IMG/VR virus record: IMGVR_UViG_3300007735_000444
Location: 1 to 20,070 of that record
Reading direction: 5' to 3' (one strand)
Origin: a virus
Length of the DNA stretch: 20,070 nucleotides
Notes under the pieces: model-generated
What the model saw: only the letters and a program-made list of their open reading frames with translations
Databases searched by the model: none
Told to the model about the DNA's origin: nothing
Position numbers and translations under genes: made by a program
Shown: piece after piece, positions 17,407-20,000 of the stretch
Position numbering within the stretch: the stretch's first letter is position 1
Layout: every line of letters starts with the position of its first letter

Positions 17407-17880
17407 TTATTCTGCTTCCACTTCGTCAACTTCATATTCTTCATCTTCAATCGTGTCGTAAGTAATATCGTTTGCAATTTGATAACTAATTGCTTCCAAT
17501 ATGGTTGATTTGGCATCTTCCTCATTTTCTGCTTCCACGCCAGTAATTGTGAATTTAATGGTTACATTAGCGGAATAAGCAAATTTGATTTCATCTGCAC
17601 CAATAAGTGTTAATAACTCATTGATAGCATCTGCATCCATTTCAACTGTTTTATTTTTATCTCCGTCTAATTCCTCTTGGAAATATTCACGGGCTTTTTT
17701 ACGCAAATCGGTAGTTTCTGCCATTGCTTTCCAATAAGCGGTTTGATAATAATCAACGCGTTCATCTAAATGTGTTACTACGGCTAAAAGTTTATCCACT
17801 TCTGCCATTAGATTTTCGCCTTGAAGTTTGTCTAGCATTTGTCTGATTGTTTCGCGTGTTGCTTGTGTATCTCTTGCCAT
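17407..17880 (-). CDS. Acidic hypothetical protein led by a hammerhead ribozyme
   Basis: A 157-residue protein. The N-terminal two thirds are helical and probably coiled coil (RETIRQMLDKLQGENLMAEVDKLLAVVTHLDERVDYYQTAYWKAM in parts). A beta-rich segment, FAYSANVTIKFTITGVEAENEEDAKSTILEAI, follows, then a strongly acidic tail (DTIEDEEYEVDEVEAE). I do not recognise the family. The tail recalls DNA mimics or Ocr-like proteins, but composition alone does not show that. It is the first gene downstream of the hammerhead at 17906-17960 and carries the GAAAGGGATA ribosome site at 17885-17894. Confidence 0.65.
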   Translation of the reverse strand: MARDTQATRETIRQMLDKLQGENLMAEVDKLLAVVTHLDERVDYYQTAYWKAMAETTDLRKKAREYFQEELDGDKNKTVEMDADAINELLTLIGADEIKFAYSANVTIKFTITGVEAENEEDAKSTILEAISYQIANDITYDTIEDEEYEVDEVEAE

Positions 17881-17905
17881 TTTGTATCCCTTTCATAGTC
17901 TGATG

Positions 17906-17960
17906 AGGCTCATCAGTAGTGCCGTCCAGCACTAGACCGCGCCGAAGCGCGGTTTCGCCT
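17906..17960 (-). ncRNA. Type II hammerhead ribozyme B
   Basis: Read on the minus strand from 17960: stem II 3' strand AGGC; core GAA (17956-17954); stem III A15.1-CCGCGC, UUCG loop, GCGCGGU16.1; C17 at 17935; stem I UAGUGC, loop UGGACG, GCACUA; core CUGAUGA (17916-17910); stem II 5' strand GCCU, which pairs with AGGC. Every invariant core base is present and all three stems are Watson-Crick. Cleavage is expected between 17935 and 17934. The stop codon of the upstream gene (17960-17962) overlaps stem II. The processed mRNA would have a 54-base leader before the ATG at 17880, capped by the stem I hairpin. Confidence 0.92.
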
Positions 17961-18154
17961 TACCTTATATTTACATACCGACTTGCAACGCGTAGTAAAT
18001 TTTGGTAGTCGCCACTCATTGAATCCATTGTGTATTGGTCCAATTGTTCTTTAGTTGCGCCAGCCTTTTTCAACGCGTTCCGAACTGAACCCATAATTGC
18101 AAACGCGTTACCATCGTTGCCCGATAATTTAACTGTTACATTGAATAATGCCAC
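17960..18154 (-). CDS. Conserved small phage protein (LSGNDGNAFAIMG type)
   Basis: A 64-residue protein, MALFNVTVKLSGNDGNAFAI then MGSVRNALKKAGATKEQLDQYTMDSMSGDYQNLLRVASRYVNI. The GNDGNAFaixG.v..aLrkaG.....i......SGDYd.LL......V pattern is familiar from small phage proteins of unknown function, often in early regions. It is probably an alpha/beta domain of about 60 residues. The start follows the upstream stop by 2 bases. Its stop codon overlaps stem II of ribozyme B, so translation could influence folding of that ribozyme. Confidence 0.75.
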   Translation of the reverse strand: MALFNVTVKLSGNDGNAFAIMGSVRNALKKAGATKEQLDQYTMDSMSGDYQNLLRVASRYVNIR

Positions 18155-19066: not shown

Positions 19067-19089
19067 TGTGTTATCCCTTTCAATGTTGG

Positions 19090-19162
19090 CTTCCTCATCA
19101 GTAACTGCGTGCCAATAGCAGTTAGACCGCGCTGACTTTTAGTGCCAACGCGGTTTCGGAAA
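19090..19162 (-). ncRNA. Type II hammerhead ribozyme A
   Basis: On the minus strand from 19162: stem II 3' strand UUUCC; GAA (19157-19155); stem III A15.1-CCGCG..., extended to 12 bp with G-U pairs around an ACUAAAA loop, back to CGCGGU16.1; C17 at 19125; stem I UAACUGC, loop UAUUGGCAC, GCAGUUA; core CUGAUGA (19101-19095); stem II 5' strand GGAAG. All invariant core positions match. Stem sequences differ from ribozyme B while pairing is kept. Cleavage is expected between 19125 and 19124, which leaves a 58-base leader before the ATG at 19066. Confidence 0.92.
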
Positions 19163-19292
19163 TTGTTGTCCCTAGTTATTTATGTTGTGCAATTGTGTGA
19201 ATTGCTATCGGTGTGCCAAACCGACCTAAAAGGTAATTCTCCATACCGACTTCCGCTTTATTTGGATTGCGCTGGTTACTCGCTAGTTTCCA

Positions 19293-19315
19293 CCTAAGTC
19301 TGTCACTAACTTAGG
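19293..19315. repeat. 7-bp hairpin with 9-base loop
   Basis: CCTAAGT (19293-19299) and ACTTAGG (19309-19315) are perfect inverted repeats in the leader. Flanking GCGC words (around 19270 and 19317) could close a larger three-way structure that includes a GGAAAC segment on the minus strand. Confidence 0.45.
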
Positions 19316-19432
19316 CGCCTGTTTTGGTCTTATGCCGAGGTGCGTTCCCTTATTTGCGTGTCATAACTCCGTGCAATGTGTTACATCGGCTAATTGCTAA
19401 CCTTGCCGAATACCGTTACTAATGCCTAAATG

Positions 19433-19463
19433 TTATCCGCCGTGCTTGGCAACGGGCGGATAA
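19433..19463. repeat. 9-bp perfect hairpin
   Basis: TTATCCGCC (19433-19441) and GGCGGATAA (19455-19463) pair perfectly, with a small inner TGC/GCA stem in the 13-base loop. There is no U tract on either side. It is a structural element of the leader RNA or a DNA-binding site. Confidence 0.5.
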
Positions 19464-19563
19464 TCTGTGCTGGCTATAACGGACTTGCACTTTGTTACTG
19501 GATACTCTGGACGGTGCCGCCAAAATAACGGATGCGGCTTGCCGTCTGTGCCTTCCATATAAA

Positions 19564-19667
19564 AAATAAGTTGCAAAAACTGTCGTCAGGGCGGTGCGGT
19601 GCGGTGGTGATATTTCAACCAACAATGCGTTATGCCGATGCCTTCACCGTGTTTTTGTAACTTATTT
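19564..19667. repeat. 17-bp inverted repeat bounding a 70-base loop
   Basis: The arms 19564-19580 and 19651-19667 are complementary at 16 of 17 positions. The exception pairs as G-U in plus-strand RNA (A-C in minus RNA), so the fold slightly favours a plus-strand transcript. The loop holds three tandem GCGGT units followed by GGTG, and CACCG near the other arm, which could extend the stem. A/T-rich ends make it unlike a normal terminator. Confidence 0.6.
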
Positions 19668-19875
19668 AATTGTCATTGTTCGGTGAGAATTACTACTGCC
19701 TAGAGCCGAAGTTGTGGGAGTGCCACTGCCGATTTCTCGGGTAACGGTTGAACTGGGTTCGTAATCTCTATTAAGTTATGGAGTAATCCTATCATATAAA
19801 GGAAATCACTGTTTTTAGAGGGTCAAATAACGGCGTTACAGCCCCGTAGAGAGGCAAATAAATGCTAGTGGCTAA

Positions 19876-19904
19876 CTTATAGCACTTGCTAATCAAAGTG
19901 TCTA
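19876..19904 (-). promoter_or_regulatory. Candidate early promoter for the ribozyme operon
   Basis: On the minus strand TAGACA (19899-19904), 17 bases, then TATAAG (19876-19881); each hexamer is one base off the sigma70 consensus. It would start the structured leader about 745 bases upstream of the ribozyme A cut. The plus strand of the same stretch has TATAAT at 19903-19908, so divergent promoters may overlap here. Confidence 0.5.
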
Positions 19905-20000
19905 TAATTGGCTTACAAGGCTAATTAACGGTATGTATAGGCAGTTGTTACTTGCCGTGTGTGCGCTTGCAATGCCACGCATATATGGCTTTACACTTGG

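What the first reader, a model, noticed from the sequence alone, without database searches (positions are those of the whole stretch)
17906..17960. Second complete type II hammerhead 1.2 kb downstream
Ribozyme B has the same core and order, with a UUCG-capped stem III, a 6-bp stem I and AGGC/GCCU stem II. Its stem and loop sequences differ from ribozyme A while pairing is preserved. That is covariation within one window and strong evidence that selection acts on the fold. Two such ribozymes in the same operon is unusual.
Basis: partly seen in the sequence, partly recalled or inferred. Interest (0 to 1): 0.85.

Follow-up and report, generated by a model that had tools for sequence, protein, structure and literature searches.

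The report
Phage self-cutting RNA with self-blocking tail
A phage messenger RNA carries, between two genes, a small self-cutting RNA (a hammerhead ribozyme) followed by a short tail that can pair with and block its own catalytic core, and in related phages this tail has changed in step with the core, suggesting a built-in off state that I did not find described in the papers I could search.

Summary
Window 17960-17906 (-) is a type II hammerhead lying exactly between a stop codon and the next gene's ribosome-binding site. Rfam RF02276 scores it 33.9 bits, just under its cut-off. 21 distinct phage sequences (window included) show compensatory changes in all three stems.
That alone is ordinary: arrays of hammerheads between phage genes were published in 2011, and I found up to nine per phage contig.
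The tail after stem II (UCAUCAG) is the exact complement of the catalytic CUGAUGA, so hammerhead and hairpin exclude each other. The only free core base, N7, changes together with its tail partner: U7:A 28, C7:G 22, no crossed case. One orthologous site shows about 5 co-changes, at least 3 well supported.
Pseudoknot hammerheads (ribozyme A) come first in all 17 contigs holding both kinds. Anti-core ones follow between genes; 60 of 84 abut the upstream stop codon (pseudoknot kind: 1 of 23).
Best reading: a self-limiting ribozyme that cuts in a short co-transcriptional window, then refolds, releasing the upstream mRNA and capping the downstream one. The pairing is well supported; the function is inferred. 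New variant of a known kind.

The parts
17906..17960 (-). Type II hammerhead ribozyme B (stem II 17960-17957/17909-17906, GAA 17956-17954, stem III 17953-17936, C17 at 17935, stem I 17934-17917, core CUGAUGA 17916-17910)
17934..17935 (-). Expected self-cleavage site (after C17935)
   Evidence: position follows from the hammerhead fold (after NUH); not tested experimentally
17900..17916 (-). Anti-core hairpin CUGAUGA-GCC-UCAUCAG, mutually exclusive with the hammerhead core and stem II
17900..17906 (-). Anti-core tail UCAUCAG (its first U is shared with stem II)
17960..17962 (-). Stop codon UAA of the upstream gene; its last A is the first base of stem II
17960..18154 (-). Upstream gene (64 aa, phrog_1933, unknown function)
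17888..17893 (-). Shine-Dalgarno AAAGGG of the downstream gene
   Evidence: read from sequence
17407..17880 (-). Downstream gene (157 aa, no known family)
19090..19162 (-). Type II hammerhead A, pseudoknot class (19161-19158/19094-19091 stem II; cut expected between 19125 and 19124)
19086..19115 (-). Pseudoknot of ribozyme A: loop I UUGGC (19115-19111) with tail GCCAA (19090-19086)

Best explanation
Ribozyme B is a type II hammerhead that processes a polycistronic phage mRNA between two genes, and it carries its own off state. Shown: hammerhead folds with covarying stems; a conserved tail complementary to the catalytic core; covariation of the tail with the one free core base; placement between genes, mostly touching the upstream stop codon. 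Inferred: (1) as RNA polymerase passes, the hammerhead can form once stem II has emerged; (2) about 6 nt later the anti-core emerges and pulls CUGAUGA and the 3' strand of stem II into a 7-bp hairpin, ending the catalytic window; (3) in molecules already cut, the same refolding breaks stem II, releases the upstream mRNA, prevents religation, and leaves the downstream mRNA with two abutting hairpins at its 5'-OH end; (4) in molecules not yet cut, it preserves the uncut message. The element is thus a self-limiting, one-way mRNA processing site.
For: Covariation in all hammerhead stems. In the motif test, N7 against the base 5' of tail UCAG/UUAG gives U:A 28, C:G 22, U:G 0, C:A 0 (Fisher 1e-14), and 19/13/0/0 in loci not picked by a palindrome pattern. 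At one orthologous site N7 and its partner change together 5 times, 3 of them forced by well-supported branches, never apart. In seven contigs whose hammerheads differ in N7, each tail fits its own core. Pseudoknot hammerheads vary N7 with no tail change, e.g. L070 against L078. Nascent-chain computation: P(stem II) 0.99 until 3 nt past stem II, P(anti-core) 0.99 from 6 nt on. Products stay annealed by about 4.6 kcal/mol with a scrambled tail, about 0 with the real tail. Stronger stem II goes with stronger anti-core (rho 0.64, p 0.046, 10 classes). Engineered 3' alternative helices block ribozymes in yeast mRNA in the same way (PMC2817708).
Against: No cleavage, RNA-end or half-life data. Nearest-neighbour energies leave out the hammerhead's Mg2+ and tertiary stabilisation, so the balance may differ. 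Some hammerheads in other phages lack any anti-core (L248, L179, Streptomyces phage phiRKBJ001), so it is not essential. GAAC-type tails make only 4 bp. A conserved loop I (UAAAYG) may give a tertiary contact that outcompetes the hairpin.
Confidence: 0.5

Rival explanations
1. Translation-gated ribozyme. The upstream stop codon touches stem II, so a terminating ribosome covers the 5' half of the hammerhead while the free core folds into the anti-core hairpin. Translated messages stay whole; poorly translated ones are cut. The pseudoknot kind in the untranslated leader has no such gate and cuts freely.
For: Anti-core hammerheads abut the upstream stop (within 2 nt) in 60 of 84, pseudoknot ones in 1 of 23 (p 3e-9); random sites 2.5%. 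In 17 of 17 contigs with both kinds the pseudoknot one is first; in the window phage it lies in a ~790-nt leader without a convincing gene, after a divergent gene.
Against: Abutment may only reflect tight gene packing: hammerheads with neither pseudoknot nor anti-core also abut (10 of 20). No translation data.
Confidence: 0.3
2. The hairpin is only a 5'-end stabiliser (or spacer) of the downstream mRNA and uses the core as a convenient arm; it has no effect on cleavage or product release.
For: In the 3' product stem I and the anti-core hairpin abut with no linker, giving a structured 5' end before a free ribosome-binding site.
Against: Any hairpin would serve; pairing specifically with the core, conserved over several stem II classes and roughly matched to stem II strength, points to competition with the hammerhead.
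Confidence: 0.12
3. The palindrome CTGATGAGCCTCATCAG is a DNA operator for a dimeric regulator that overlaps the ribozyme.
For: Perfect 17-bp inverted repeat (one central base) in the window; covariation keeps DNA palindromes too.
Against: 18 of the anti-core helices hold a G.U pair, loop lengths vary (3 to 8 nt and more), helices are 4 to 8 bp, one has a bulge, and the element always starts at the core of a hammerhead.
Confidence: 0.04
4. An ordinary type II hammerhead; the tail match is a lineage relic without function.
For: Related sequences share tails; some hammerheads do without one.
Against: Repeated joint changes of N7 and partner, own-core matching within a genome, and 45% of non-pseudoknot hammerheads not picked by the palindrome pattern carry a matching 5-nt anti-core against 7.6% of other CTGAYGA sites.
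Confidence: 0.04

Closest known systems
Type II hammerhead ribozyme, Rfam RF02276 (Perreault et al. 2011, PMC3088659)
   Same: Core, open stem II, closed stems I and III, phage context, several per operon between genes.
   Different: The known consensus uses the tail after stem II for a pseudoknot with loop I that supports fast cleavage; here the tail pairs with the catalytic core instead. Score 33.9 is below the Rfam cut-off; nearly all relatives are missed by Rfam at that cut-off.
Engineered alternative-helix ribozymes in yeast mRNA (PMC2817708)
   Same: A downstream complementary insert forms a helix that excludes the active ribozyme fold.
   Different: Artificial chimeric mRNAs with another ribozyme; here natural, conserved and in phages.
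Viroid hammerheads that act co-transcriptionally (review PMC3185496)
   Same: Activity tied to folding during transcription, with inactive metastable folds possible.
   Different: Viroid hammerheads serve rolling-circle replication; here a 7-nt local tail in a DNA phage mRNA.
HDV-like theta ribozymes of gut phages (PMC10879173; title and start of abstract only)
   Same: Self-cleaving RNA in phages.
   Different: Other ribozyme class, linked to tRNA-based recoding.

Membership tests
Type II hammerhead ribozyme (RF02276) | Conserved core CUGANGA / GAAA / UH with three stems, stem II open | tested here: met
   Read in sequence; stems covary in 21 distinct sequences
Type II hammerhead ribozyme (RF02276) | Score at or above the Rfam gathering cut-off | tested here: not met
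   33.9 bits against 37. This is a library threshold, not a feature of the fold; E for this one family in this record 3.3e-7
Type II hammerhead ribozyme (RF02276) | Loop I pseudoknot with tail of at least 4 bp (described for a majority, not for all members) | tested here: not met
   Ribozyme B: at most 2 bp found; ribozyme A has it. Hence B is filed as a type II hammerhead by fold, of a variant without the pseudoknot
Type II hammerhead ribozyme (RF02276) | Self-cleavage after NUH giving 5'-OH and 2',3'-cyclic phosphate | not testable with these tools
   needs in vitro or in vivo RNA ends
Anti-core variant proposed here | Tail complementary to own core, N7 and partner covarying | tested here: met
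Anti-core variant proposed here | Hairpin forms in RNA and competes with the hammerhead | tested here: inconclusive
   Energy model favours it by 3.6 kcal/mol without tertiary terms; no probing

The most novel reading that the evidence does not exclude
Phage operons carry two functional classes of hammerhead: an unrestrained pseudoknot kind in the untranslated leader and, between genes, a translation-gated kind whose anti-core keeps the ribozyme off while a ribosome terminates at the abutting stop codon, so that cutting reports on translation of the upstream gene.
Probability: 0.27. Interest if true: 0.85.

Novelty: new variant of a known kind. Interest (0 to 1): 0.62.

Why it matters
The role of hammerheads in prokaryotes has been called an open question (PMC6155905). 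A conserved, covarying element that opposes the ribozyme is evolutionary evidence that the extent or timing of cleavage is under selection, and it predicts simple tail-swap experiments. The two positional classes (leader against between-gene) give a concrete hypothesis for why one operon keeps several ribozymes.

Tried and rejected
Chance motif: rejected by shuffles and covariation. Tail as a loop I pseudoknot in ribozyme B: at most 2 bp. Tail pairing with other hammerheads of the same genome: rejected, each tail fits its own N7. DNA operator: disfavoured by G.U pairs and variable loops. Terminator: no U-run follows the hairpin. The first estimate for non-hammerhead CTGAYGA sites was inflated by loci picked for the palindrome; it was redone without them. 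Partner assignment by folding favours paired cases, so the motif test, which does not depend on N7 pairing, is the one to trust. Host search: one weak match in genome contigs. Protein relatives are mixed: DUF932 gives mostly actinobacteriophages, but the 64-aa gene also hits many Listeria and Campylobacter phages and the terminase's listed best hits include Roseobacter, Brevundimonas and Microcystis phages beside Arthrobacter phages, so an actinobacterial host is only a guess. Isolated phages: phiRKBJ001 (Streptomyces) has at least 5 type II hammerheads, none with an anti-core; the stretches fetched around matching genes or matching DNA in four further isolates (Arthrobacter and Mycobacterium phages) gave no hammerhead; DNA searches for an isolate with an anti-core kind led to no such isolate (their hits were not scanned). 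Papers: nine searches brought up no account of an anti-core in titles or abstracts, nor in the passages of four papers that I looked up (searches; passages), but the library lacks most subscription journals, including part of the 2011 hammerhead literature.

Full report
The window is a 20,070-base viral record holding phage genes (terminase, RecT, DUF932 and others), with its recognisable genes on the minus strand. On that strand ribozyme B reads AGGC GAA ACCGCGCUUCGGCGCGGU C^ UAGUGCUGGACGGCACUA CUGAUGA GCCU from 17960 to 17906. Rfam's type II model matches at 33.9 bits, E 0.0014 over all Rfam, short of its gathering score of 37; ribozyme A reaches 42.4. In 100 dinucleotide shuffles of the window no motif as good as B appeared.

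B sits between two genes with no room to spare. The UAA of the 64-aa upstream gene is 17962-17960, so its last A is the first base of stem II. The Shine-Dalgarno (17893-17888) of the 157-aa downstream gene follows the structure described below after 6 bases.

I collected relatives by the two flanking genes, by a palindromic pattern and by two patterns of stem I and core that say nothing about the tail. A descriptor scan found 130 distinct candidate hammerheads, 127 after dropping weak or cut-off ones. Contigs carry up to 9. This agrees with what Perreault et al. 2011 reported for prophages (PMC3088659), so two in one operon is not unusual. On 21 distinct sequences with B's geometry, B included (stem III trimmed to its first and last 6 bases), 12 of 16 stem pairs have two-sided changes, 72 cells against 18 in shuffles, 99.4% paired. 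Rfam's model finds many of the others below its cut-off.

The new point is the tail. After stem II, B continues CAUCAG, so that CUGAUGA-GCC-UCAUCAG is a perfect hairpin. It uses the whole catalytic core and the last base of stem II and cannot coexist with the hammerhead. The core is invariant except for N7, so N7 is the only place where two-sided covariation can show. It does. Taking hammerheads without a loop I pseudoknot and looking only at the base before UCAG, UUAG or UCAA in the tail, U7 goes with A 28 times, C7 with G 22 times, and the crossed pairs U:G and C:A never occur; four others (U:U twice, C:U, U:C) are not of this kind, and 36 of 90 have no such tail motif at that spacing. Without the loci that were picked by the palindrome the counts are 19, 13, 0, 0. 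The pattern allowed crossed pairs, so it did not force this result. In a tree of the downstream protein of one orthologous site, N7 and partner each change 5 times, and every independent pair of rows that differs in N7 differs the same way in the partner; starred branches force at least 3. The sign test cannot reach significance with so few pairs, so the repeated joint events are the evidence. Where one genome has hammerheads with different N7, each tail fits its own core. Variants include G.U pairs (UCGUUAG), a bulged form (CUG-a-CGAG CCUA CUCGCAG) and short forms (CUGA/UCAG in GUUCAG).

Pseudoknot hammerheads, such as A, use the same tail position to pair with loop I. Their N7 varies with no tail change (L070 U7, L078 C7, same tail). 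In all 17 contigs with both kinds the pseudoknot one is first and single. Anti-core ones abut the upstream stop codon in 60 of 84 cases, pseudoknot ones in 1 of 23, random positions in 2.5%. In the window phage's near twin, A lies after about 790 bases without a convincing gene next to a divergent gene, so probably in a leader.

Mechanism, inferred. Folding the growing RNA, stem II is 99% formed until 3 bases after it and the anti-core 99% formed from 6 bases on. Full precursor: anti-core fold -27.9, hammerhead fold -24.3 kcal/mol, without Mg2+ or tertiary terms. After cleavage the products would stay annealed by about 4.6 kcal/mol if the tail is scrambled, and by about nothing with the natural tail. 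Thus the anti-core should close a short catalytic window, release the upstream message, and leave the downstream message with two abutting hairpins at its 5' end. In yeast, competing helices placed after a ribozyme can block it, and short ones exchange fast (PMC2817708). Whether the purpose is limiting the extent of cleavage, product release, or gating by the terminating ribosome cannot be told from sequence. I favour the self-limiting, one-way site (0.5) over the translation gate (0.3).

Limits. The statistics rest on metagenomic viral contigs, partly near-copies, and no host is known. No isolate with an anti-core hammerhead was found. Classes were assigned by simple rules, so the borders between 'anti-core' and 'none' are soft. 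I have no activity data.

Noticed in passing
L036 4622, 6470, 8728; L042 1345, 3652; L044 2759, 3761; L127 5557, 7871; L095, L114 (offsets on the oriented strand): A ~19-nt word GT[AC]NGCA-N(2-5)-TTTAATCC lies inside stem III of many anti-core hammerheads and also stands alone elsewhere on several of the same contigs; it may be a protein-binding or transcription element.
   Followed up: partly
L070 (-) 7298 and 8957; L050 4857; L066 1360 (offsets on the oriented strand): A hairpin GCGCARUUGUUYAAGC..CGC sits in stem III of an anti-core hammerhead and directly after a pseudoknot hammerhead of the same phage, like a portable regulatory site.
   Followed up: partly
window, stem III of ribozyme A (about 19154-19126, -) and relatives: Stem III of pseudoknot hammerheads is capped by the same loop ACUAAAA in 17 of 23 although the stems differ.
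   Followed up: partly
Streptomyces phage phiRKBJ001, MT936332.1, L299 2957-9027: An isolated phage with at least 5 unannotated type II hammerheads between genes, no anti-core; the annotated start of gene 91 falls inside one of them.
   Followed up: partly
L248: A 75-kb phage contig with 9 hammerhead candidates in one region, 8 of them with the same stem II GGUC/GACC and no anti-core.
   Followed up: no
window 19163-19950: About 790 bases without a convincing gene upstream of ribozyme A, between a divergent gene and the operon; probably promoter and leader.
   Followed up: no
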